NCBI GenBank assembly: GCA_019426215.1
Contig: CM033396.1
Span: 21,343,101-21,407,100 of the forward strand
DNA length: 64,000 nucleotides
Source: Buddleja alternifolia
Taxonomy: Eukaryota > Streptophyta > Magnoliopsida > Lamiales > Scrophulariaceae
Direction: 5' to 3'
The position numbers and the translations under genes were made by a program. Below the pieces are notes generated by a model. It made no database searches and was not told where the DNA came from. It saw only the letters and a program-made list of their open reading frames with translations. Positions 20,248 to 44,907 of the stretch are shown piece after piece; positions within the stretch are counted from its first letter, which is position 1, and each line of letters starts with the position of its first letter.

Positions 20248-21745
20248 ACGATAGCGTTCGATATTGTCTCGGCAGCCACCGAAAACAGTCATTGCCCAGG
20301 TGGTGATGCTCGCTGGTAGGGTAATCCGGTACCCCACTCGGATTCTTGATTATTTTTTTTTGAAATTATAATAATTATTGAAATTAAAAATTCTAGAAAA
20401 TATGATTTTCTTAAAATTAGATTTTTGAGAAAATAAAATTCCTTAAATTGGATTTAAAGGATTTAATTAATTTAAGGTTTAAAATTTTTATTTTTGGAAA
20501 ATATTAAGTTTTGATCTTAAAGGATAGATTTTTTGAAAACTAGATTTTTAAAGATTGTGTTATTTTAGGTTGAAATTAATAATTTCAAAAATTATTTATT
20601 TCAAGCCTTGGAAATAATATTTGAATAAAAATCCAAATAAATCTCAATGTACATGATTTTAAATTGAACGATGAATGGGTAAATTTAAATATTGCATTTA
20701 TGTGAGCTTGGCATGATTTATGTGATATAGGATGAACCACGAGCCTAGGTTATGGATCTGGTTTTGTTTGTATGTAATTTTTAAAGTTAGAAAAATAGCC
20801 AGTTCGGCTCTTTTTATTTTCTGTAATTAGATTAGATGTAATTAGATTATAATTTTAATCGAAGATGAAGAATGAAGATGGAGGCCAAATTGAAGATGTG
20901 TATGCTTTGACGAATCTCTTGTAATAGATTAGCTGTTTTTAAATTGCTAGAAGTCTAGACCCACTTTGACTCAGTAGGTTGCATAGGATAAAGGCTCAAG
21001 GTGGTTCATCCTTATTTACTCACTTTGTGGATGTTTATTTTATCTATCATGTTTTATTATGTTATGTGTTTGGAATGCATGCATAGGATAGATAACCTTA
21101 ACAACATATTAATATGATGAAACCTATAAAACTGTTAACTCCCTCCTGAGAAAGTATTGGGCTTATATGGAATATAAGGTGGGATCTTTAATTCCATGTC
21201 TTCCATCATAAGTAATGACATGAGAAATGCCTCTGAAGGTTACCAATCAAGACGAACCTAGAGAGTCGCGCTACAAGGAATAAGCAGAAAATCACTTTTG
21301 TGTAATTTGAGGGGCATTTTGGTAATTTATCATTACAAGGAACTTAGACTTAGGTTAATCAGTTATTAGTTGCCATAAAAATTATTTAGTAGAGAGAAAA
21401 ACATTCTCTCCCTCTTCTTCTCTTCTAGCCACCACTTGGAGATGGATGAGAAAGATTTCTGGTGACTTCCGCGCGTGATAATCTAGAGGCAGGAGTCTTG
21501 TGGATTACTGATGTAGGCGGTAGATCATGAAATAAAACACGCTACAACGAGGTTAATTTTCATTTTTCGTATATCTTGGTTTTAATTAAAATCAACTTAC
21601 GATCAAATTGATCCATGGATTCGGGAATCAAAAATTATTCTGCTATATTTTTCATGTATCGATTCCCAAGACAGTTAGCCGAATTTTAGCGATTTAATGC
21701 ATGTTTGTTAATCAGTCTTCCAAATAGAGATATTACGGGAGTTAT
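20248..21745 (+). mobile_element. Continuation of Copia-type non-coding DNA with LTR-like 3' part
   Basis: The GC-rich block resumes (to about 20340) and is followed by AT-rich quasi-repeats. From about 20750 the sequence resembles the second Copia-type LTR family in the plus orientation: AAGACGAACCTAGAGAGTCG near 21252 and GATAATCTAGAGGCAGGA near 21477. It then runs to the chromovirus insertion point. Internal boundaries are unclear and no coding capacity is seen. Confidence 0.45.
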
Positions 21746-22307
21746 TGTAACGCCCTCAAATTTAATCCTAAAGAATCCAACACGAAAGCGTCAACATGCC
21801 CTCAATTTAATCCTAAAGAATCCAACACGAAAGCGTTATCCTATCCTTACAGAAGTACAAACCAAATTCTGGACACAATTAAACAATTCATCTTATCGGG
21901 TCACAACCCCAATACATCAACTAAATAGCTATGCGAACTTAATATACATGAGTCAATCTACATCATCACCTCTAGGATAGTCCGAGTTTATACTCCGATC
22001 CTTCAAGCTAGTTTCACTTCTTAACTTGCCTATAACTGGAAGGAGGAAAGTGAAGTACATAAGCAAAGGCTTAGTGAGCGCCAGTGTACGTGTGTGAAAG
22101 GTGCTTAAAATAGTTTTAGACCCCAAAGTGATAAATTAATAATGTGAAAACAATAATAGTTTCTATTTTTCAAACGCTCATTAAAAGGCGAGTAAGAATG
22201 ACATTTGCGTTCAAGCAGCAGCTGGTATGACACCAGGATCTTAGTATACATACGATAAAGTTTTAAAACATGCATTTTTAAAAGTGTGCAGTCAATGTAA
22301 GTACCAC

Positions 22308-22407
22308 GTACAAGACTCAATGCAAGTATCATGTACAAGACTCAATGCAAGTATCATGTACAAGACTCAATGCAAGTATCATGTACCAGACTCAATGCAA
22401 GTATCAT
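22308..22407. repeat. 25-bp tandem array, four units
   Basis: Four adjacent copies of GTACAAGACTCAATGCAAGT plus ATCAT, the fourth with one A-to-C change, then a partial unit. The same array occurs with four units at 28925-29024 and, inverted, with five units at 30394-30518. Confidence 0.9.
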
Positions 22408-24364
22408 GTACAAGACATGTTTAAGTAACACGTACACGTCACGCTTAAGCAGTAGGGGGCCATGTTAGCAATACTATCGCGTCCGATGATTTACCCATAG
22501 CACTTTGGATCCCTCTACTTCTTCCTTATCACCCCTGAACACGCGGCTTAAAAGCCATCACCTTATACCTCCCCACGCAGGCTCGCGATGCCCGATTTGG
22601 TCATATCCGGAATATGCCACACGATAAATGACCCATGCACCCTCAGAGCACTCCGTCCTAGGTGCATGGATCTGGACGTGGATAGCGGGAACTATTTAAG
22701 ACCGCAAGCCCATGCTTGACCGGCCGAACCCTGCCCTATCCATCGCCCGACCTTGGGCCCAACACAACCACGCAAGATGAAACATGTCACAAGAACACCA
22801 TCACGACAAATGATCATGATACAAGAACCAAAAGATGGAGTACTTCAACGAAATCCATAAAAACCGATGTTTATTTTGAAATCATGCTTGTAAAATATGC
22901 ATTTGAAACAAGTATGCAATCATGTATGTCACGAATGATTAAATGAAGCGTTTTGGCTCACGAAAGAATATTGAATCGAGCAAATATTTTTTTTTTTTTC
23001 AGAATTTCATCAAAAGAATGTTTTCTTGAAATCATTTTCACAAAACCTGCCTGGAAAATTATTCTCGCAAGATATGTCTTTGAAACGTGCCAAGAAATGG
23101 TTAATGCAAACTGAGTCCATGATTTGATTTGAAAGTGTTGAAATTCATTTTCATGTGAAGTATTGAAAGCATGATGAAAGTATATAGATATATATACAAC
23201 GTGCTCCCTGCAGTTTTGAAAGACATATAACTATAATTTTTAGAGGCACTCACACTACGTCCAAGCTTATACGGCGTTGTCCTTGTTCATCTCACCGACA
23301 ACACCTGCTAAGCGAAATTATATCAGAAACTCATTTTCTAACTCGTCTAAAGTCCACCCGGGGTAGTCTATGAGGTCCTAATAACTATACAAACATGCAC
23401 AACAAGTTACCTTAATGAAAACTAGGCTTAATTTCAATCTTCCCCAAAAGGTCGATAAGAGGCATAAAAACAGATTTGTGCAATTTTAGTGTATGAATTG
23501 TTAAAAAATCATAAACTCAATAATTGTGGGTGAATTTATTTTTTTTCATAAATGTTCTAAATTTTTTTAAAAGACCTTAGATAAATTTTTCAAAGGTAAA
23601 TGATCACTTAAATGTGGCTATTTTATTCAAAACCGAAGTAAAATTGGGTTTAATTTTTACTGGGGCAGCATTACTTTAAAATTCATATAAAATCACCCTT
23701 TAATCCAATAAGCCCCAATTTCATACACAAAAACCCCAATACATATGATTATCCCCTGTAAAATTTTGAAATCAAAATAAAGTTCGTAAGAACCCCAAAT
23801 GATGTCTCAAACAAACATTTTGAAATCCCGTAAGGCTTCTGGCAGTCTATACTTAACAATTTCCATAATTCACATTACAACTCTAAAAATCCCACACAAT
23901 TCCAGAAATATTTTAGACATGCAGTAACATACACAGTAAAAGGTTTGAACTCAAATAACATTTCGTAATTTCGATACAATTCTTTGAAATCAGCAGCAGA
24001 TTTAAAGACCCAACTTACAATTGTCATGCATGTGTGATTTCTTCATTTAAGCCTTTAGGTTAGTTACTACAAATTGTAAATTTAAGCTTAAAACTTATAG
24101 ATCTACTCTTCTAATAACCATGCAATAACATTTTCAAAGCACATTTAGCCTCTACCATTACCTACTAATGTAAGATCAAGGAATTACAAGTTACCTTTAA
24201 TGCTACCCACAAGTGTGAAGATGGTTGAGGTTGAAGCTAATATACTAATTTGTATCTATCTATATATAACTTGAATGGAAGGATGAATAGGGTTGAAGAT
24301 GATGAAAATGGAGAAGAAGAGTGAAGAGATATTTGTATGTAAACTAAAATAATGAAACTAAGGC

Positions 24365-24366
<2 letters not shown>

Positions 24367-24398
<32 letters not shown>
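24367..24398. repeat. (TA)n microsatellite in the chromovirus 3' LTR
   Basis: About 16 TA units; the corresponding region is absent from the rearranged 5' LTR. Confidence 0.9.
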
Positions 24399-24406
<8 letters not shown>

Positions 24407-24621
24407 GTGTGATGGTGGTGGTCGGTCAAGGCCCCATTTTCTACCCCACCTTTTTTTTTATTATTATTATTATAGAGTGAAATGAAAGTGGAATACTAGA
24501 TCCTTTAATTTACCTAAGATGTATAATCTAATATCTCCCTTGAACATATGTCTAAGATCCTAGGTCATGTCCTAATGCTTTAGATAGAAACTAGTCGACT
24601 AAAAAAAACTCGGGTATCACA

Positions 24622-24634
24622 TTCTCCCCTCCTT
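24622..24634 (-). other. Polypurine tract of the chromovirus
   Basis: Plus strand TTCTCCCCTCCTT, i.e. AAGGAGGGGAGAA on the minus strand, abutting the 3' LTR. It fits a plus-strand primer. Confidence 0.8.
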
Positions 24635-24649
24635 AAAAGAATTTGGTCC

Positions 24650-25850
24650 CCAAATTCTCACCTGAGAACAATTCCGGGTAGTGTCTTCGCATGTAAACCT
24701 CGGTTTCCCAAGTTGCTTCTTCTAGATTGTCGTGATTTTCCTATAACACCTTTACCATTGGGATGCTTTTAGTCCACAGCTCACGCACTTTCTTGTCCAC
24801 AATCTTTATCGGTTTTTCTTCATAAGTCAAATTGTTCTGAATTGGTATTGCATCCACCTTGAGTACATGTTCAGGATCGGGTCGGTATTTCTTTAACCTG
24901 CTTGCGTGAAAGACATCGTGCAAACCAGAGAGTGCTGGTGAGAGTGCCAGTCGATATGCTACTTTTCCAACTCTTTCCAAGGTCTTGAAAGGTCCAACAA
25001 ATCTAGGACTTAACTTTCCACCTTTCTTAGGTTGAATGATGCCGCTCCGAGGAGATAGCCGCAAGAAAACCTCATCTCTGACGAAAAATTCTAAGTCTTT
25101 TCTTCTTTGATCGGCGTAACTCTTCTGACGACTCTGTGCAGCTTTCATTCGTTCCTGGACAATTTGGATTTTATCTATAGCTTCTTGTACCAATTTCAAT
25201 TGTGGGAACGTTGTTTGTCCCTGATTTTTCCTCTTAGGAATCCATGTATCTCCAACTTTCCAACGAATTGGGGACCTGCACTTTCTCCCATATAAGGCTT
25301 CATATGGTGCCATTCCAATTATGGCCTGATAGCTATTGTTATAAGCAAATTCTGCTAAAGCTAAGTATTGAGCCCAATTTCCTTTAAATCCAAAACACAT
25401 GCTCGCAACATGTCTTCTAGTATTTGAATGACTATCTCAAATTGTCCATCCAACTGAGGATAAGTTGTCATGCTAATGACTAGCTTAGTTTCCAATGCAA
25501 CATGTATGCTTTTCCAAAATTGTGAGAGGAATGAGAGGAACCACTGCTCAATGGTATGGATCTCTGGACTCTACTAAGGACAAGGTTAACTAAAACACCA
25601 TGCCGTCTCACAATTTCCTTAACGTACCATCAAGCTAACTTAGAGAGGTTCTACCTCCCGGACGGGCAAGAAATGAGCTCATTTTGTGAGCCCATCCACA
25701 ATTATCCCAATAGAATCATAGCCACTTGTAGCTTGGGGCAAATCAGTTATAAAGTTCGCTGTTAGATATTCACCTTTCCATTCCGGTATTTTTGTTTTTA
25801 AAGGTGGTAAGAGTCCAGAAGATCGTTAAGGTTTGATGTTTTGATTTCAC
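24650..25850 (-). pseudogene. Chromovirus integrase and chromodomain remnant
   Basis: The longest piece (24741-25400) contains AEFAYNNSYQAIIGMAPYEA and GRKCRSPIRW, diagnostic of the plant Ty3/gypsy integrase C-terminal region. It is followed by a GPF-type motif (LSPRFVGPFKTLERVG) and HDVFHASRLKKY. A stop (VL*ENHD, about 24738) then interrupts a chromodomain-like tail, NLEEATWETEVYMRRHYPEL, which would direct integration to marked chromatin in an intact element. Upstream, beyond a stop, the frame shows LEDMLRACVLDLKG; a decayed zinc-binding segment (CFTCQQVK) lies near 25850. Stops and frameshifts make it non-functional. Confidence 0.8.
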
Positions 25851-26129
25851 TTGTTGACATGTAAAGCATCGTGAGACATAATTAGTGACTTGGCTGTTCA
25901 GATTGACTAACCAGTAATATTCCTTAATTCCTTATGCATCTCATTACTGCCAAGGTATATGGTCTTTTTCAAGCGACGAGCTTCATCAAGTATAACCTTC
26001 TTCACACTAGTGTCATTTGGTACATACACCCTATTTTAAACTATATCAGGCCGTCTTCCCAGATATGAAATTCACGCCTATATTTCTTGAAGGGTCTTCT
26101 CTCTTAAGTTCTTGAATATAGATCTTTCT

Positions 26130-26450
26130 CTAGTGCAACTTTGATCCAAGAACATTGGGTTCTACTTTGATATTAGCACACAAGATGTGTAATCCAAATT
26201 CTTTTGTATTCCAAAAATTCACATCCTTCCACATCCTCCATCCGTTATCCATTAATCTTGCAACACTCCTTTTCTGACTTAAAGCATCTGCTTCTACATT
26301 AGATTTTCTAAGATGGGTTTGGATTGAACACTTGTAGTCTTCAAGAAGTTTCATTCTCTTTGTTTGTCTCAAATTCAACTCTTTTTGAGAGAATAGATAC
26401 TTAAAACTTTTGTAGTCGGTATGATGCTCCATACAAGTAATGTCTCCACT
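26130..26450 (-). pseudogene. Chromovirus RNase H remnant
   Basis: The minus strand encodes HTDYKSFKYLFSQKELNLRQ and, further on, RKSNVEADALSQK. These correspond to the Ty3 RNase H end pattern 'TDHKSLKYLF.QK.LN.RQ...ANVVADALSRK'. It lies between the RT and integrase remnants in the expected order. The N-terminal RNase H part is broken by stops. Confidence 0.75.
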
Positions 26451-26799
26451 TTGTTATTTCATAAATAATGGAGGCTACTGCCATATCATGGGTTGGGTAG
26501 TTCTATTCGTAGGGTTTGTGTTTACCCTATACATATCTCTTTACCATTTTGCATAAGCATACATCCAAGTCCCTCCTTAGAGACATCACCATAAACTCCA
26601 AAATTATCATTTCCATTAGGAAGTTCTAAAATGCGTTGTTGTGAGCCTTTTCTCTAACTCTTGGAAGCTTGACTTAGACTCATCATTCTATTCAACTTCA
26701 TCTTCCTTTGAGTTAGTTGAGATAAATGTCCTGCTATCTTAGAGAAATTCTTGACAAATCTCCGATAGTATCCTGCTAATCCGAGAAAGCTTCTTGCTT

Positions 26800-27500
26800 T
26801 TTTTTTTTCTCAGGTCTTTTCCATTCCAAAATAGATTCTACCTTCGAGGGGTCGACATAGATTCCATTACCCATAATCACATGACCTAAGAAGGCAACCT
26901 TAGTTAACCCAAACTCACACTTGCTAATTTCACGTAGAGCTTGTTGTCTCTTAAGACTGGCAATACAATCCTTAAGTGTCGTTCATGATTTTCTTTGGTC
27001 TTAGATATAGACAATGATGTCGTTTATAAATATCACCGCAAGCGATCCAAATTAGAAGGTAATATACTATGCATAATATCCATAAGGGTTGTTGGGGTAT
27101 TGGTCAATCCAACTGGCATTTCAACAAACTCATATTGTCCGTATCTTGTTTGGAAAGTGGTCTTAAGTTCATCTTCATTGTTAATTCTTAATTGATCATA
27201 TCCTTGTTGCAAATCAAGCTTAGAATCTAACGTAGCTCCTTGGAGTTGGTCAAACAATTCTTCAATTCATGGAAGAGGACACTTGTTCTTGATGGTTACA
27301 CTATTTAACCCCCGGTATTCTACACCTAGCCCTAATGATCTGTCTTTCTTCTTGCCAAATAACACTAGAGCTCCCCACAGAGACGTATTAGGTTCAATAA
27401 ATCCTATCTCCACAACTTTAATAGCTAAGCTTTCCTTATATTGGAGTAGTTCGGAGTAAACGCTCGATGGCGAACTCCCTTCCCTATCTGTTGGTAAAGA
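26800..27500 (-). pseudogene. Chromovirus reverse transcriptase remnant with mutated active site
   Basis: The minus strand shows LDLQQGYDQLRI, RYGQYEFVEMPVGLTN, then FINDI at 27018-27032 and KCEFGLTKVAFLGHVI. In the family the active-site motif is F-I/V-D-D-I. Here the first catalytic Asp is Asn, so the enzyme would be inactive even without the stops. Reading frame is lost shortly after the motif. Confidence 0.8.
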
Positions 27501-28349
27501 GATTAAAATTCAGGAACTACAAATACTTATTTAATATTCACTTTATCTTTTGTCTTGTTAATCATGGAAGCTCAATATTGTTCCCTTTCTTTCCAAAGTG
27601 TCTTTTGCACCATAACAACTGAAATGATAGGTGCTAAAGTAATCCTTATGTTCCCCTACTAGATCTGTAATCAACTTACCAGATGCAAAAGACTTCACAA
27701 ACCTTGTAAGATAATCTATTAGGCATGATGATAAGACAACTAATCCATTTCTAGAACATTGTCTTACTCTTGTATAGGTAGCACTATAAGACCAGTTGTA
27801 AACGATTTTCCACTAATCATTATGTTACTGGACTTAAATCACTGAATCCATAACCATGCCACTATCCTTTCGTGTAGTAACTTCTAAGTTAACTTTTATA
27901 GTACGATCAAAAATTAAAATAGTCATTTATAATCACCTTTCCTGTATCACATCCAAAAATTATTCTGTAATATCAATAAACTATCACTGTACTAAAGAAA
28001 CTACATGAAAGCTAATTTCCCACTTGTTTTCTCATAAGTAGGAGGTTGAGTAATTAATGTAATTCCTCTTGTTCACAAGAATATTCATCCTTCATTCTAT
28101 TACACCTTTTCCGATTCAAGTGTCTCTTTGCAATCAAAGCACCTATAGTGTTTTATTCTAGACACGTTCCTAGCTCAGCCCTACAATTGTAATCAATCAT
28201 CGCTTGGTCAGCCGCCCAAACAATGGTTTGTCACAATTTAAGTACTGAAACACTATATCTCCAACCTTATTATCATATCGAACTCTCACTTAATACCTAA
28301 AACCACAGTCCGAGGAACCTATCCCGGAATAGCTCAGGCACTAGCCCAA
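27501..28349 (-). pseudogene. Residual gag/protease region of the chromovirus
   Basis: About 850 bp between the RT remnant and the primer site, where a full element would carry gag and protease (normally over 1.5 kb). I see only a possible zinc-knuckle scrap near 28130 (minus strand, CFDCKE) and many stops, so most of gag has been deleted or decayed beyond recognition. Confidence 0.4.
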
Positions 28350-28361
28350 GCTCTGATACCA
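28350..28361 (-). other. Initiator tRNA-Met primer binding site of the chromovirus
   Basis: Plus strand GCTCTGATACCA is the complement of TGGTATCAGAGC, the canonical primer site. It lies two bases from the 5' LTR end. Confidence 0.9.
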
Positions 28362-28924
28362 TCTGTAACGCCCTCAAATTTAATCCTAAAGAATCCAACA
28401 CGAAAGCGTCAACACGCCCTCAATTTAATCCTAAAGAATCCAACACGAAAGCGTTATCCTATCCTTACAGAAGTACAAACCAAATTCTGGACACAATTAA
28501 ACAATTCATCTTATCGGGTCACAACCCCAATACATCAACTAAATAGCTATGCGAACTTAATATACATGAGTCAATCTACATCATTCACCTCTAGGATAGT
28601 CCGAGTTTATACTCCGATCCTTCAAGCTAGTTTCACTTCTTGACTTGCTTATAACTGGAAAGAGGAAAGTGAAGTACATAAGCAAAGGCTTAGTGAGCGC
28701 CAGTGTACGTGTGAAAGGTGCTTAAAATAGTTTTAGACCCCAAAGTGATAAATTAATAAGGTGAAAACAATAATAGTTTCTATTTTTCAAACGCTCATTA
28801 AAAGGCGAGTAAGAATGACATTTGCGTTCAAGCAGTAGCTGGTATGACACCAGGATCTTAGTATACATACGATAAAGTTTTAAAACATGCATTTTAAAAA
28901 GTGTGCAGTCAATGTAAGTACCAC

Positions 28925-29024
28925 GTACAAGACTCAATGCAAGTATCATGTACAAGACTCAATGCAAGTATCATGTACAAGACTCAATGCAAGTATCATG
29001 TACCAGACTCAATGCAAGTATCAT
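28925..29024. repeat. 25-bp tandem array, four units (direct arm)
   Basis: Same unit and same fourth-unit variant as at 22308-22407. Confidence 0.9.
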
Positions 29025-30393
29025 GTACAAGACATGTTTAAGTAACACGTACACGTCACGCTTAAGCAGTAGGGGGCCATGTTAGCAATACTATCGTGTC
29101 CGATGATTTACCCATAGCACTTTGGGTCCCTCTGCTTCTTCCTTATCACCCCTGAACACGCGGCTTAAAAGCCATCACCTTATACCTCCAATTAAATGAT
29201 CATTTACCTTTGAAAAATTTATCTAAGGTCTTTTAAAAAAATTTAGAACATTTATGAAAAAAACAAATTTCACCCACAATTATTGAGTTTATGATTTTTT
29301 AACAATTCATACACTAAAACTGCACAAATCTGTTTTTATGCCTCTTATCGACCTTTTGGGGAAGATTGAAATTAAGCCTAGTTTTCATTAAGGTAACTTG
29401 TTGTGCATGTTTGTATAGTTATTAGGACCTCATAGACTACCCCGGGTGGACTTTAGACGAGTTAGAAAATGAGTTTCTGATATAATTTCGCTTAGCAGGT
29501 GTTGTCGGTGAGATGAACAAGGACAATGCCGTATAAGCTTGGACGTAGTGTGAGTGCCTCTAAAAAGTATAGTTATATGTCTTTCAAAACTGCAGGGAGC
29601 ACATTGTATATATATCTATATACTTTCATCATGCTTTCAATACTTCACATGAAAATGAATTTCAACACTTTCAAATCAAATCATGGACTCAGTTTGCATT
29701 AACCATTTCTTGGCACGTTTCAAAGACACATCTTGCGAGAATAATTTTCCAGGCAGGTTTTGTGAAAATGATTTCAAGAAAACATTCTTTTGATGAAATT
29801 CTGGAAAAAAAAAATATTTGCTCGATTCAATATTCTTTCGTGAGCCAAAACGCTTCATTTAATCATTCGTGACATACATGATTGCATACTTGTTTCAAAT
29901 GCATATTTTACAAGCATGATTTCAAAATAAACATCGGTTTTTATGGATTTCGTTGAAGTACTCCATCTTTTGGTTCTTGTATCATGATCATTTGTCGTGA
30001 TGGTGTTCTTGTGACATGTTTCATCTTGCGTGGCTGTGTTGGGCCCAAGGTCGGGCGATGGATAGGGCAGGGTTTGGCCGGTCAGGCAGGGGCTTGCAGT
30101 CTTAAACAGTTCCCGCTATCCACGTCCAGATCCATGCACCTAGGACGGAGTGCTCTGAGGGTGCATGGGTCATTTATCGTGTGGCATATTCCGGATATGA
30201 CCAAATCGGGCATCGCGAGCCTGCGTGGGGAGGTATAAGGTGATGGCTTTTAAGCCGCGTGTTCAGGGGTGATAAGGAAGAAGCAGAGGGACCCAAAGTG
30301 CTATGGGTAAATCATCGGACGCGATAGTATTGCTAACATGGCCCCCTACTGCTTAAGCGTGACGTGTACGTGTTACTTAAACATGTCTTGTAC

Positions 30394-30518
30394 ATGATAC
30401 TTGCATTGAGTCTGGTACATGATACTTGCATTGAGTCTTGTACATGATACTTGCATTGAGTCTTGTACATGATACTTGCATTGAGTCTTGTACATGATAC
30501 TTGCATTGAGTCTTGTAC
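30394..30518. repeat. 25-bp tandem array, five units (inverted arm)
   Basis: Reverse complement of the array at 22308, with one extra unit. The variant unit lies at the expected end. Confidence 0.9.
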
Positions 30519-31242
30519 GTGGTACTTACATTGACTGCACACTTTTAAAAATGCATGTTTTAAAACTTTATCGTATCTATACTAAGATCCTGGTGTCATA
30601 CCAGCTCCTGCTTGAACGCAAATGTCATTCTTACTCGCCTTTTAATGAGCGTTTGAAAAATAGAAACTATTATTGTTTTCACCTTATTAATTTATCACTT
30701 TGGGGTCTAAAACTATTTTAAGCACCTTTCACACGTACACTGGCGCTCACTAAGCCTTTGCTTATGTACTTCACTTTCCTCCTTCCAGTTATAGGCAAGT
30801 CAAGAAGTGAAACTAGCTTGAAGGATCGGAGTATAAACTCGGACTATCCTAGAGGTGAATGATGTAGATTGACTCATGTATATTAAGTTCGCATAGCTAT
30901 TTAGTTGATGTATTGGGGTTGTGACCCGATAAGATGAATTGTTTAATTGTGTCCAGAATTTGGTTTGTACATCTGTAAGGATAGGATAACGCTTTCGTGT
31001 TGGATTCTTTAGGATTAAATTGAGGGCGTGTTGACGCTTTCGTGTTGGATTCTTTAGGATTAAATTTGAGGGCGTTACAGATTATTATTATTATAGAGTG
31101 AAATGAAAGTGGAATACTAGATCCTTTAATTTACCTAAGATGTATAATCTAAGATCTCCCTTGAACATATGTCTAAGATCCTAGGTCATGTCCTAATGCT
31201 TTAGATAGAAACTAGTCGACTAAAAAAAACTCGGGTATCACA

Positions 31243-31349
31243 GTTATCGCGGGGGATCGGCTAATGAACATAAAAGGAAAATCCACCTTAGCAACATTGG
31301 AATAATAATATGAGAACGTGTGTATAACAAAAATTGATTAATTTGTGCT
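31243..31349. other. Short unassigned segment between chromovirus and Athila LTR remnant
   Basis: Continues from the left flank at 21745 once the chromovirus is removed. No feature recognised; probably the end of the Copia-type DNA or the decayed start of the Athila LTR. Confidence 0.4.
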
Positions 31350-31729: not shown

Positions 31730-32114
31730 ATGGCTGGCAACTTTCCAGATATGAACCTTCCAGAGAACCAAATATGGTTGTAAAATGTCATTCAAGCATG
31801 TCATGCGCAAGAGTTCTTTCCATCACCAATCCAAGTGAGATTTCCAACTACGGGGGAACAAGCTTCTTTTTATAGTTTGATATTTCCGTTCAGTCCCATC
31901 GACCCACCCACACAACCACAGGGAACATATCACGTACCTCAACCCTCCTACCATCACAATCAAAGCCCAAGCCAAGGAATTCATCAACCAATTGACCAAG
32001 GGAGAGCTTCTATTGTAGAGGAGAGACTAGATGCCCATATTCGAAAGTGTGATGAAGACAACAATGAACTTTTCCGGATGATTAAAGAAATGCTATGTCA
32101 TATGAGTCAATTAT
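31730..32114 (+). pseudogene. Athila-A gag, N-terminal remnant
   Basis: The ATG at 31730 opens a frame reading GNFPDMNLPENQIWL, matching [15 protein letters not shown] of the intact Athila Gag. A TAA stop follows at 31781-31783. After a large internal gap, ERLDAHIRKCDEDNNELFRM and MLCHMSQL match the pre-C-terminal Gag segment ([20 protein letters not shown]). So most of the capsid region has been deleted, and the reading frame is then cut by the solo LTR at 32115. Confidence 0.75.
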
Positions 32115-34047
32115 TGATAAGAGGTGTTTTTACGTGTTTTTAAGACCGTAATTCTTATGATTTGGATTCACTTATTGCTTAAATCATGTCACATTTGCAT
32201 TTAATAGGTGTGTTAAGTGAATACAGGTAATAAATGGGAATACATGAAGAAAAGGAAAAAAAAACGATGTACAAAACAAGTTCAAGCATGTTTTTCAACA
32301 CCAAGGCGGTTAATGCATCTCCTACCACATTCAAGTGATAATTCTGTACATTTCGAGATGGACTTAGACAAAGTTTCCTTCTACAAAGTTTTATATGTAT
32401 GTCTTAGCTTCAAATGGGAACTTGAAACATCCAAATCCGAGGTCTATAGAGATAATTGTGAAGGAAATACGATTGCTGCGCCGACCAGAGAAGTACATGT
32501 GTCAGGATACGCTCCAGCGCCCTCCTAGTCATGCCTAGGCATGGATAGTCCGAATGTTACTCCTTTTCAGACTAAATTCCAGCATTATATGATGGGTAAG
32601 AATCACTTTTGGCCATAATTCAGCACATGTGTTGAGGGGTTGTCATAAGTGTGTTTCTTGGTAGATTTACTTTATGGGCGCCAAATCAGAAACAACCTCC
32701 TTGTTGAAACGTAATTTAGGTATACTTAGCGACCGAATTGGACAAAATGTCCTTCTGGAAAGTTGTAGATCTGTGTTTTATCTGAACATGGGGACTTAAA
32801 TCATCCAATTTGGAGATCTTTGGAGAAGTTTAGGAGGAAAATACTAAGACTGCGCTGGAAAGCAAGAAAATGGCAGCATGCATGTGTTTTGTTGAAGTTT
32901 TCACATGGTTATTCTTGGTGGAATTCTTAAGGGCCGAAAGTTCAGCATTTTTTAGCTGGTTGGAATCTTAAAAGCCAAACTTTAAGCATCACCTTAGGTG
33001 GAATTCTCATTGGGGAACTTTAATGGGAATTCTTAATGCATACTTTAGTGGAATTTTGGCTATAAAAGGAGGAGGAACCCATACTCTTCATAATTCACTA
33101 TCAATTCCAGATTCTTAGAGGAGAGGGGGGCAGCCCCTAATCTGATTTCTCCACCATTCATCACCATTCTTCATCACTCTTGGAGGGGAAAACTAGAGGA
33201 AGGAAAAGAGCTTGGGGATTGAAGGCTCAACTTCAAGATCCATCATCATTCACCATTTAGGGAGTTTTTAAGAGCTTTTCATTTCATTTATGTCTATGAA
33301 TATTCCTCTTATGTCTTTTATGCTTTCAATTATGAACTAAATTCGTAAGACTAGGGCCATGTAAGGCCAAATTGTGATATATGCTTACAATAGATGATTG
33401 TTGAGGTTGTTCTTATATTGTTATGTGATGTGAATTGTGTTTTAGTCTATCTTGCATATACTTGATCACTATATGTTAGAATCTTAGGCCTAGGTTAATA
33501 TTTCGGGAGAAAATTGACTTAGGGTGCAAGAAATTCACATCATGACCCGCAACTAATGAGGAATTGCCCTACACATAGGTAAAGATTCCCGGGTGAAGTC
33601 GTTCGATTCAAATCGAGTGAACTCTAGTACATTAATGCATGTTTAGTGGTTAGATTTTCGGATAGGGATATTTGGGAAATCACGATCTAAGTATAGGAGT
33701 TTATACGCGAGACATCGGTTATTCTCTACCTTAGGAGTTTTCACCATAACAATATAAGAGTAATTCTACAACAAGAGCCTTTATAAGTATATTTGATCAA
33801 TTTGGACCTAGCATGTGCCTTAGTCTCCCTTTATAATTGCTTTTAATTCATTTGCATAACCTTGTTCTTATTGTACATGCAATTTTACCTATAATTTACT
33901 TTAATTATATTTGTTCTTTTTTTTTGTTAAAATCATAAACTAAAATTCAAGTCTCCGTGGTTCGACAACCCGGACTTTTCATCCACACTTATTACTACAC
34001 ACGACTAGTGCACTTGCTACAATAGCACGTTAGCTTTTAGCGTGTCA
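32115..34047 (+). mobile_element. Solo Athila LTR inserted in the Athila-A gag
   Basis: Plus-strand copy of the LTR of the complete element, starting TGATAAGAGGTGTTTTTACG and ending TTAGCGTGTCA, 1,933 bp. Flanks ATTAT (32110-32114) and ACTAT (34048-34052) are a 5-bp duplication with one mismatch. The gag frame resumes on the right as SSKMSEEALGTLLSDTD. Contains a TATAAAAGG box at about 33060. This is the longest version of the LTR here and keeps both U3 blocks that are each missing from one LTR of the complete element. Confidence 0.85.
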
Positions 34048-34298
34048 ACTATCGAGCAAAATGTCCGAGGAAGCACTCGGAACATTGCTGAGTGACACTG
34101 ACTAGAATTTGAAGGAGCAATGTAATACCGTGGCTTTGAATGAAAGAAAGTTAGAAAATTCAGGAATTTTTTCCCTACATAGCACATCTGAACGTGCAGA
34201 CCATGACATTCGAACGTCCACAGCTGACTCCTCAAGTGATGAGTATTCGACTCCTATCCTTTCTAAGCCCGTTGACATTCATTTACCATATCCCCTAG
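34048..34298 (+). pseudogene. Athila-A gag, C-terminal remnant
   Basis: Reads SEEALGTLLSDTD*NLKEQC, matching [20 protein letters not shown] of the intact polyprotein, with one stop. It continues to PILSKPVDIHLPYPL, matching the segment before the protease. The insertion site of the complete Athila element (34299) cuts it. Confidence 0.8.
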
Positions 34299-36182
34299 TG
34301 ACACGCTAAAAGCTAACGTGCTATTGTAGCAAGTGCACTAGTCGTGTGTAGTAATAAGTGGACTAAAAGTCCGGGTTGTCGAACCACGGAGACTTGAATT
34401 TTAGTTTATGATTTTAACGAAAAAAGAACAAATATAATTAAAGTAAATTATAGGTAAAATGCATACAATAAGAACAAGATTACACAATTGATTTTACACA
34501 AAGTATAAAGGGAGACTAAGGCACATGCTAGGTTCAAATTGATCAATTATACTTATAAAGATTCTAGTTGAAGGATTACGCTTATATTGTTATGGTGAGA
34601 ACTCCGAGGGTAGAGAATAACCGATGTCTCGCGTATAAACTCCTATGCATAGATCGTGATTTCCCAAATATTCCTATCCAGAAATCTAACCACTAAACAT
34701 GCATTAATGTACTAGAGTTCACTCGATTTGAATCGAACAACTTCACCCGGGAATCTTTACCTATGTCTAGGGCAATTCCTCATTAGTTACGGGTCATGAT
34801 GTGAATTTCTTGCACCCTAAGTCAATTTTCTCCCGAAATATTAACCTAGGCATAAGATTCTAACATATAGTGATCAAGTATATGCAAGATAGGCAAAAAC
34901 ACAAATTCACATCACATAACAATATAAGAACAACCTCAACAATCATCTATTATAAGCATATATCACAATTTGGCCTTACATGGCCCTAGTCTTATGAATT
35001 TAGTTCATAATGGATAATATGAAAAACATAAATGAATTAATACACATGTTCATAGACATAATTGAAATGAAAAGCTATAAAAACTCCCTCAAAAGTGAAT
35101 AATGATGGAACTTCAATTGAATCTTCCTTCTCCAATGATGATGATGAATCAAGAATCCTTCTCTCTCCCCTCTTTTCTTCTCTATGGATCGGTCACTTCC
35201 TCCCCCTCTTCTCCAAGAATCTGAAATTGATAGTGAATGATGAAGAGTATGGGTTCCCCCTGCTTTTATAGCCAAAATTCCACTAAAGTATGCATTAAGA
35301 ATTCCCATTAAAGTTCCCCAATGAGAATTCCACCTAAGGTGATGCGTAAAGTTTGGCTTTTAAGATTCCAACCAGCTAAAAAATGCTAAACTTTCGGCCC
35401 TTAAGAATTCCACCAAGAATAACCATGTGAAAACTTCAACAAAACACATGCATGCTGCCATTTTCTAAACTTCTCCAAAGATCTCCAAATTGGATGATTC
35501 AAGTCCCCATGTTCAGATAAAACATAGATTTACAACTTTCCAGAAGGATATTTTGTCCAATTCGGTCGCTAAGTATACCTAAATTACGTTTCAACATGGA
35601 GGTTGTTTCTGATTTGGCGCCCATAAAGTAAATCTACCAAGAAACACACTTATGACAACCCCTCAACACATGTGCTGAATTATGGCCAAAAGTGATTCTT
35701 ACCCATCATATAATGCTGGAATTTAGGCTGAAAAGGAGTAACATTCGGACTATCCATGCCTAGGCATGACTAGGAGGGCGCTGGGGCGTATCCTGACACA
35801 TGTACTTCTCTGTTCGGCGCAGCAATCGTATTTCCTTCACAATTATCTCTATAGACCTCCGATTTGGATGTTTCAAGTTCCCATTTGAAGCTAAGACATA
35901 CATCTAAAACTTTGTAGAAGGAAACTTTGTCTAAGTCGGTCTCGAAATGTACGGAATTATCGCTCGAATGTGGTAGGAGATGCATAAACCGCCTAGGTGT
36001 TGAAAAACATGCTTGAACTTGTTTTGTACATCGTTTTTTTTCCTTTTCTTCATGTATTCCCATTTATTACCTGTATTCACTTAACACACCTATTAAATGT
36101 AAATGTGACATGATTTAAGTAATAAGTGAATCCAAATCATAAGAATTACAGTCTTAAAAACACGTAAAAACACCTCTTATCA
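34299..36182 (-). repeat. 3' LTR of the complete Athila element (1,884 bp)
   Basis: Starts TGACACGCTAAAAGC and ends ACACCTCTTATCA on the plus strand. It carries a U3 segment of about 0.37 kb (roughly 35503-35878) absent from the other LTR and lacks about 45 bp present there. A TATAAAAG box lies at 35263-35270 on the minus strand. Confidence 0.95.
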
Positions 36183-36197
36183 ACACCCCCAAACTTA
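36183..36197 (-). other. Polypurine tract of the complete Athila element
   Basis: Plus strand ACACCCCCAAACTTA, i.e. a TAAGTTTGGGGGTGT reading on the minus strand, next to the 3' LTR. A second similar run lies near 37455. Confidence 0.9.
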
Positions 36198-43352: not shown

Positions 43353-43358
43353 AAAACT

Positions 43359-44907
43359 TGACACGCTAAAAGCTAACGTGCTATTGTAGCAAGTGCACTA
43401 GTCGTGTGTAGTAATAAGTGGACTAAAAGTCCGGGTTGTCGAACCACGGAGACTTGAATTTTAGTTTATGATTTTAACGAAAAAAGAACAAATATAATTA
43501 AAGTAAATTATAGGTAAAATGCATACAATAAGAACAAGATTACACAATTGATTTTACACAAAGTATAAAGGGAGACTAAGGCACATGCTAGGTTCAAATT
43601 GATCAATTATACTTATAAAGATTCTAGTTGAAGGATTACGCTTATATTGTTATGGTGAGAACTCCGAGGGTAGAGAATAACCGATGTCTCGCGTATAAAC
43701 TCCTATGCTTAGATCGTGATTTCCCAAATATTCCTATCCAGAAATCTAACCACTAAACATGCATTAACGTACTAGAGTTCACTCGATTTGAATCGAACAA
43801 CTTCACCCGGGAATCTTTACCTATGTCTAGGGCAATTCCTCATTAGTTACGGGTCATGATGTGAATTTCTTGCACCCTAAGTCAATTTTCTCCCGAAATA
43901 TTAACCTAGGCATAAGATTCTAACATATAGTGATCAAGTATATGCAAGATAGGCAAAAACACAAATTCACATCACATAACAATATAAGAACAACCTCAAC
44001 AATCATCTATTATAAGCATATATCACAATTTGGCCTTACATGGCCCTAGTCTTATGAATTTAGTTCATAATGGATAATATGAAAAACATAAATGAATTAA
44101 TACTCATGTTCATAGACATAATTGAAATGAAAAGCTATAAAAACTCCCTCAAAAGTGAATAATGATGGAACTTCAATTGAATCTTCCTTCTCCAATGATG
44201 ATGATGAATCAAGAATCCTTCTCTCTCCCCTCTTTTCTTCTCTATGGATCGGTCACTTCCTCCCCCTCTTCTCCAAGAATCTGAAATTGATAGTGAATGA
44301 TGAAGAGTATGGGTTCCCCCTGCTTTTATAGCCAAAATTCCACTAAAGTATGCATTAAGAATTCCCATTAAAGTTCCCCAATGAGAATTCCACCTAAGGT
44401 GATGCTTAAAGTTTGGCTTTTAAGATTCCAACCAGCTAAAAAATGCTAAACTTTCGGCCCTTAAGAATTCCACCAAGCATAACCATGTGAAAACTTCAAC
44501 AAAACACATGCATGCTGCCATTTTTTTGCTTTCCAGCGCAGTCTTAGTATTTTCCTCATAAAATTCTCCACAGATCTCCAAATTGGATGATTCAAGTTCC
44601 CATTTGAAGCTAAGACATACATCTAAAACTTTGTAGAAGGAAACTTTGTCTAAGTCAGTCTCGAAATGTACGGAATTATCGCTCGAATGTGGTAGGAGAT
44701 GCATAAACCGCCTAGGTGTTGAAAAACATGCTTGAACTTGTTTTGTACATCGTTTTTCTTCCCTTTTCTTCATGTATTCTCATTTATTACCTGTATTCAC
44801 TTAAGAAATAAGTGAATCCAAATGCAAATGTGACATGATTTAAGAAATAAGTGAATCCAAATCATAAGAATTACGGTCTTAAAAACACGTAAAAACACCT
44901 CTTATCA
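43359..44907 (-). repeat. 5' LTR of the complete Athila element (1,549 bp)
   Basis: Identical ends to the left LTR and nearly identical R-U5 half, but a shorter, mosaic U3: bases 44521-44907 cannot be derived from the other LTR by one deletion. A 20-bp phrase (AAATAAGTGAATCCAAAT) is duplicated near 44806 and 44845. Confidence 0.95.
44321..44333 (-). promoter_or_regulatory. TATA box of the Athila 5' LTR promoter
   Basis: Minus strand GGCTATAAAAGCAGG, a strong plant-type TATA box; transcription would be expected to start about 25-30 bases downstream, near 44295. The same box is kept in the 3' LTR (35263-35270) and in the solo LTR (about 33060). Confidence 0.7.

What the first reader, a model, noticed from the sequence alone, without database searches (positions are those of the whole stretch)
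28364..31242. 5' LTR of the chromovirus carries a 1.9-kb inverted LTR copy
The right LTR is: direct first part, then a reverse complement of LTR bases about 1-1866 that runs two or three bases past the LTR edge into primer-site flank, then the last 160 bp. The LTR ends and the GTTAT duplication are intact. The inverted part includes LTR/primer-site junction sequence and an extra 25-bp unit. This suggests aberrant strand transfer during reverse transcription between two template copies, or a post-insertion fold-back repair event. It creates inverted arms of about 0.83 kb that would make a long hairpin RNA, a natural trigger of small-RNA silencing.
Basis: partly seen in the sequence, partly recalled or inferred. 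Interest (0 to 1): 0.75.

Follow-up and report, generated by a model that had tools for sequence, protein, structure and literature searches.

The report
Retrotransposon end with inverted self-copy
One end repeat of a plant retrotransposon contains a 1.9-kb backwards copy of itself, most likely made when the copying enzyme folded back on its own new DNA strand before the element inserted; it looks like a well-preserved single accident and not a new kind of element.

Summary
The right (5') LTR of a minus-strand Gypsy element (21746-31242) reads: LTR 1-827 direct, reverse complement of LTR 1-1866, LTR 2715-2876 direct. LTR ends, 5-bp duplication and primer site are in place. Junction 1 matches once in the 853.6-Mb genome; none of 38 other LTR copies examined (some partial) shows an inverted piece. 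The inverted piece belongs to this element's own lineage: it shares ten near-private variants with the left LTR (clade support 99-100). In LTR 1-827 the three window copies form a star, with no derived base shared by only two, so the event dates to about the insertion (95% upper bound 47% of its age). Junction 2 ends 2-3 bases past the LTR, at the primer-site edge that reverse transcription defines. Junction 1 carries a perfect 14-bp palindrome. Best reading: fold-back or opposite-strand switching while the 5' LTR was being reverse-transcribed. The small-RNA claim is not supported by the anatomy: putative LTR promoters in the two arms point outward and would not transcribe the hairpin. New variant of a known kind of error. 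The junction-2 genome search did not complete.

The parts
21741..21745 (.). GTTAT target-site duplication, left copy
21746..24621 (-). Left LTR = 3' LTR of the minus-strand element, 2876 bp, used as the reference for LTR positions
24622..28363 (-). Internal region, 3742 bp, with degenerate pol pieces (RT piece 27033-27266, integrase H2C2 25770-25931, integrase C-terminal SH3 in 24741-25400); no gag domain in the 11 distinct pieces scanned of 41 open stretches listed
28350..28361 (-). Primer binding site TGGTATCAGAGC (initiator tRNA-Met type, name recalled), two bases (GA) from the LTR edge
28364..29189 (-). Right (5') LTR, direct piece = LTR 1-827 (left arm of the inverted repeat)
29190..29206 (.). 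Junction 1: 3-base filler AAT and perfect 14-bp palindrome TAAATGATCATTTA (29193-29206)
   Evidence: junction pattern matches once in the genome
29193..31079 (+). Inverted piece = reverse complement of LTR 1-1866, with one extra 25-bp repeat unit; 30229-31079 is the right arm
31080..31082 (.). Junction 2: GA(T), the bases that lie between LTR edge and primer site next to 5' LTRs of the family; AT also fits the acceptor
31081..31242 (-). Right (5') LTR, last direct piece = LTR 2715-2876
31243..31247 (.). GTTAT target-site duplication, right copy
28601..28611 (-). TATA-like box in the direct arm, pointing out of the hairpin into the element
   Evidence: promoter role inferred
30832..30842 (+). 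TATA-like box in the inverted arm, pointing out of the hairpin towards the right flank
   Evidence: promoter role inferred

Best explanation
The 5' LTR was rearranged while it was being made by reverse transcription, before integration. The growing minus strand, copying the plus-strand strong-stop LTR, stopped at a self-complementary TGATCA site and folded back, or switched to an opposite-strand LTR template. It copied minus-strand LTR to the primer-site edge (LTR end plus GA), then returned to the still uncopied part of the plus-strand template and finished the outer 162 bases. The intact ends were then integrated normally, with a 5-bp duplication. If the fold-back was on itself, part of the palindrome (about 1 kb of one arm) was lost then or later. 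Shown: anatomy, shared lineage, rough age, palindrome, endpoint. Inferred: the strand events and their order.
For: Same lineage: ten sites in LTR 828-1866 where left LTR and inverted piece agree against both C5 LTRs and all but at most one of the 33-36 other loci readable at each; clade support 99 in 828-1866 and 100 in 1-1866. Age: left-direct 10/825, left-inverted 24/1862, direct-inverted 7/825 substitutions; at 12 variable substitution sites in 1-827 no derived base is shared by exactly two of the three copies; modelled time of the event as a fraction of element age: median 0.15, 95% upper 0.47 under a flat prior. Junction 2 falls at LTR edge + GA(T), where minus-strand cDNA has its 5' end: about 4 positions in 2,876 if ends were uniform (own estimate). 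Junction 1 has the only perfect 14-bp palindrome in the right LTR (the left LTR has such palindromes only inside an AT repeat); it is one base away from the left LTR's sequence, and none of the 35 other copies compared there has its TGATCA core. TSD and LTR ends intact. Self-priming of minus-strand cDNA is a documented HIV-1 error (PMC4668388, passages).
Against: The extra 25-bp unit is in the inverted piece but in neither direct copy; one template alone does not give that without slippage. In LTR 1-827 taken alone the raw distances do not single out a common origin: the inverted arm is 8/825 from the left LTR and 7/825 from the direct arm, but also 6/825 from one C5 LTR and 6/800 from several other copies, and the grouping of the three window copies there rests on two sites with support 76. 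Changes of the inverted piece, counted by hand with two doubtful sites included, are denser in its loop (12/1037) than in its arm (3/825, p 0.07) or in the left LTR's same stretch (12 against 3, p 0.035); unexplained. The palindrome could be one later G-to-A change. Timing rests on 13 substitutions and cannot separate reverse transcription from an event soon after insertion.
Confidence: 0.6

Rival explanations
1. Post-insertion fold-back or microhomology-mediated replication repair (MMBIR-like) inside a normal 5' LTR: a polymerase switched to the opposite strand, copied back past the LTR edge, then switched forward again.
For: Junction 2 has a 2-base overlap (AT) and junction 1 a 3-base filler, as such repair leaves. 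The donor flank GAT fits the 5' LTR in place, not the 3' LTR, whose flank is the target site. Inverted LTRs next door (32114-36183) show a tract that looks converted after insertion.
Against: No derived base shared by direct arm and inverted piece alone. Stopping within 3 bases of the LTR edge would be coincidence.
Confidence: 0.18
2. A sibling cDNA of the same RNA lineage, inserted or end-joined backwards into the 5' LTR at position 2714/2715, followed by a deletion that removed its other end together with LTR 828-2714.
For: The inverted piece ends at an LTR edge, as an inserted or captured cDNA would; the three-way star relation also fits a sibling; the extra 25-bp unit would be natural for a second RNA.
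Against: Integrase-made ends stop at CA, but here GA follows and the left LTR has T at that target base. Needs a second insertion by the same lineage at about the same time plus a deletion. Among the 36 other loci compared site by site no copy of this private lineage was seen, but only 40 of 1387 candidates were scored and a deeper search did not complete.
Confidence: 0.17
3. Assembly or library artefact joining copies wrongly.
For: No reads were available; the family is repetitive.
Against: Arms differ by 7 substitutions and a 25-bp unit, and the inverted piece has its own private changes, so a simple foldback read, which gives identical arms, does not explain it; the pieces share variants found in at most one other copy; it lies in a 43.9-Mb contig.
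Confidence: 0.05

Closest known systems
Template-switching LTR retrotransposon complexes of Triticeae, rice and maize (Sabot and Schulman 2007, PMC1950507, main text read whole)
   Same: Aberrant product of one reverse-transcription cycle, integrated once: flanking TSD intact, outer LTRs of one age
   Different: Those have a third, internal LTR and two internal regions; this has two LTRs with an inverted self-copy inside one
HIV-1 proviruses with inversions or asymmetric LTRs (PMC9278108, passages)
   Same: Integrated proviruses with strand-transfer errors; the passages report two single cases with inversions (1.3% each) and many with unequal LTRs
   Different: The model shown there is an intact 5' LTR with a deleted 3' LTR; here the 5' LTR holds an inverted copy of itself
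Self-priming of minus-strand strong-stop cDNA (PMC4668388, passages, citing Guo et al. 1997)
   Same: A minus strand folds on a hairpin and copies itself
   Different: Described there as aberrant cDNA linked to the TAR hairpin; here the product would have been completed and integrated, and the hairpin is a TGATCA site in the LTR
Autointegration inversion circles (PMC2644782, passages)
   Same: Inverted arrangement with an LTR end inside the element's own DNA
   Different: Products are circles made by reactive CA ends; here the product is integrated with TSD and keeps GA after the CA

Membership tests
LTR retrotransposon insertion (Ty3/Gypsy) | Two LTRs, TG...CA, 5-bp TSD, PBS next to the 5' LTR | tested here: met
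LTR retrotransposon insertion (Ty3/Gypsy) | pol domains in order RT - integrase | tested here: met
   RVT_1, Integrase_H2C2 and SH3_Tf2-1 pieces on the minus strand in that order; reading frames broken
Chromovirus | Chromodomain at the integrase C-terminus | tested here: inconclusive
Product of aberrant reverse transcription | Single integration event: intact TSD and outer LTR ends | tested here: met
Product of aberrant reverse transcription | Rearranged part as old as the insertion | tested here: met
   within wide limits (upper bound 47% of age)
Product of aberrant reverse transcription | Breakpoints at landmarks of cDNA synthesis | tested here: inconclusive
   Junction 2 at LTR edge + GA(T): met. 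Junction 1 at no known landmark; no TATA[AT]A motif 25-35 bases upstream of it
Nested inverted insertion | Integrase-processed CA end joined to target, TSD on both sides | tested here: not met
   G follows CA where the left LTR has T; a second TSD copy is not present, but it could have been deleted
Natural hairpin silencing locus (such as maize Muk, recalled) | Transcription across both arms and matching small RNAs | not testable with these tools
   No RNA data; TATA-like boxes face outward

The most novel reading that the evidence does not exclude
The 5' LTR is a chromosomal record of minus-strand self-priming: a lineage-specific base change created a TGATCA hairpin in the LTR, the nascent minus strand folded on it, copied itself to the primer-site edge, returned to its template, and the product was integrated. 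This would be a single-molecule route to inverted-repeat LTRs in plants, with a predictable hotspot.
Probability: 0.4. Interest if true: 0.5.

Novelty: new variant of a known kind. Interest (0 to 1): 0.36.

Why it matters
Template switching between element RNAs is known in plant retrotransposons, but opposite-strand switching inside an LTR that still integrated cleanly seems little documented: searches of the held open-access papers showed no plant case in the titles and abstract starts listed (25 of 209 and 20 of 96 papers were listed, so this is no proof of absence). The copy is well enough preserved to date the event and read both breakpoints. Inverted LTRs made this way are also ready-made hairpins if a neighbouring promoter reads through them.

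Tried and rejected
Complete minus-strand strong-stop DNA as the inverted piece: rejected, because the inner breakpoint (sense position about 1011) has no TATA[AT]A motif upstream within the expected distance, while a conserved TATA-like box sits at sense 2630.

C5:24920895 copy as donor: it scored like the inverted piece, but over LTR 1-1866 it differs from it at 33/1856 sites against 24/1862 for the left LTR, and lacks the shared variants. In 1-827 alone it is as near (6/825) as the window's own copies. Rejected for the whole piece.

3' LTR as donor after insertion: its outer flank is the target site, not GAT. Rejected.

Equal length of the two LTRs (2876 and 2879) as a sign of a simple inversion: rejected; the inverted piece is 1-1866, not the replaced 828-2714, and the match in length depends on the 25-bp unit.

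Coding search: 11 distinct stretches of the internal region were scanned with Pfam (2, 10, one of them nearly the same stretch twice) out of 41 open stretches listed.

Full report
What is there. The window lies at C7:21343101-21407100 of an 853.6-Mb, 429-contig genome. A minus-strand LTR retrotransposon spans 21746-31242, flanked by GTTAT on both sides. The left LTR (3' LTR) is 2876 bp. The right LTR (5' LTR, next to the primer site TGGTATCAGAGC read on the minus strand) is 2879 bp and is built of LTR 1-827 direct, the reverse complement of LTR 1-1866, and LTR 2715-2876 direct. The internal region is 3742 bp, with broken RT and integrase pieces.

How unusual it is. A 42-base pattern across junction 1, with up to 3 mismatches, matches once in the genome, at this locus. 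One search scored 40 of 1387 candidates for the first 600 LTR bases: 3 of the 40 strong places are the window's own, and the 37 others were all fetched; with the second LTR of the C5 element that makes 38 other LTR copies. None shows an LTR piece over 80 bp in the opposite direction within its fetched stretch. At least three (L006, L013, L041) cover only part of the LTR. The junction-2 search did not complete in 19 tries, so uniqueness rests on junction 1, and the family is larger than the sample.

Lineage of the inverted piece. In LTR 828-1866 the left LTR and the inverted piece agree at ten sites (nine substitutions and one inserted base: 1088, 1102, 1266, 1453, 1463, 1465, 1544, 1817, 1821, 1858) against both C5 LTRs and all but at most one of the 33-36 other loci readable at each. 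In IQ-TREE they form a clade with ultrafast-bootstrap support 99 (37 of 42 rows kept) and, for 1-1866, 100 (38 of 42 rows kept). In 1-827 (41 of 42 rows) the three window copies stand together against the rest with support 76 and are unresolved among themselves; they share 300G (0 of 36 other loci) and 277T (1 of 36). Raw distances in 1-827 are too small to settle it: the inverted arm is 8 from the left LTR, 7 from the direct arm, and 6 from one C5 LTR and from several other copies. On the whole piece the inverted copy comes from this element's own lineage.

Age. Differences are 10/825 (left-direct), 24/1862 (left-inverted) and 7/825 (direct-inverted). Of the 12 variable substitution sites in 1-827, five are changed only in the left LTR, four only in the direct arm, two only in the inverted piece, and one has three states; none is a derived base shared by just two of the three. 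Two of these bases (735, 772) recur in one C5 LTR. A Poisson model with counts 6, 4, 3 and 0 shared puts the event at median 15% of the element's age after insertion, 95% upper bound 47%; of the printed values the likelihood is highest at insertion. The C5 element's own LTRs differ by 25/1857, so the two insertions are of similar age.

Junctions. Junction 2 reads TTACA-GAT-TATTATT. Five-prime LTRs of the family are followed by GA and then the TGG of the primer site, so the inverted piece stops at the LTR/primer-site boundary, where minus-strand cDNA has its 5' end; the T may come from either side. A uniform endpoint would fall there in about 4 of 2876 positions (own estimate). Junction 1 has a 3-base filler and a perfect 14-bp palindrome at 29193-29206, the only one of that length in the right LTR; the left LTR has such palindromes only inside an AT repeat. 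The left LTR has the same site with one mismatch. Of the 35 other LTR copies compared there, 33 have TGACCA, one has another change and one is gapped across the site; none has TGATCA. This favours, but does not prove, fold-back priming at this site. The re-entry point (sense position 162) lies in the part of the plus-strand template that would still have been uncopied.

Mechanism. The simplest account is an opposite-strand excursion of the growing minus strand during synthesis of the 5' LTR, with return to the same template, followed by normal integration. On the fold-back version the original product was a full palindrome and about 1 kb of one arm was lost; on the direct-switch version the jump occurred at junction 1. 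Results against it: the 25-bp extra unit in the inverted piece alone, and more changes in its loop than expected (hand count, tested). Post-insertion repair and a captured sibling cDNA remain possible.

Hairpin silencing. Arms of 826 and 851 bp would pair well, but the conserved TATA-like box (TATAAACTCGG in 40 of 41 readable rows) lies about 240 bases from the outer end of each arm and points outward (28601-28611 minus, 30832-30842 plus). Transcripts from these boxes would not include the loop. A hairpin RNA needs read-through from outside. Nothing here tests small RNAs.

Comparison with print. Sabot and Schulman 2007 (PMC1950507, main text read whole) describe template-switch complexes with intact TSDs in cereals, but with a third internal LTR. 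HIV-1 work reports proviruses with inversions and asymmetric LTRs (PMC9278108, passages) and self-priming of minus-strand cDNA (PMC4668388, passages). Autointegration gives inversion circles (PMC2644782, passages). High-frequency recombination within one plant LTR family is the subject of PMC5668417 (title and start of abstract in the listing only). Searches listed no plant LTR with an inverted self-copy by title or abstract start; searches returned no papers. Not every paper that held the terms was listed.

Verdict. A real, apparently single, well-preserved rearrangement: a known kind of process in an uncommon form. Interest is moderate.

Noticed in passing
window 32114-36183 and 43358-44907: A second element beside the first has LTRs at 34299-36183 and 43359-44907 and an inverted relative of the LTR at 32114-34047. 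The left LTR is a mosaic: 34299-35464 is 99.6% like the right LTR, while 35465-36183 is 97% like the inverted neighbour (about 90% over the whole length), which looks like gene conversion between inverted LTRs.
   Followed up: partly
G000:C10:13705597-13721814 (L042-L044): LTR-internal-LTR-internal-LTR of the same family with GCTAA on both sides, and the right flank repeated at 13736117: a three-LTR complex plus a roughly 14.3-kb duplication.
   Followed up: partly
window 24622-28363; C5 element (L001): The internal region is only about 3.74 kb, with broken pol and no gag hit in the pieces scanned, yet a C5 copy has nearly the same length at 98.8% identity and several other LTR pairs are 6.6-6.7 kb apart: the family seems to have spread in this short, probably non-autonomous form.
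   Followed up: no
LTR 2749-2756 (24494-24501): This element, C5 and two other copies (L017, L036) lack a stretch of about 70 bases that most of the other sampled LTRs carry here, marking a subfamily.
   Followed up: no
LTR 958-1022 (left LTR 22703-22767) against the inverted piece: Five changes of the inverted piece, found in at most one of 36 other loci, fall within 65 bases (LTR 958, 967, 971, 981, 1022); cause unknown.
   Followed up: no
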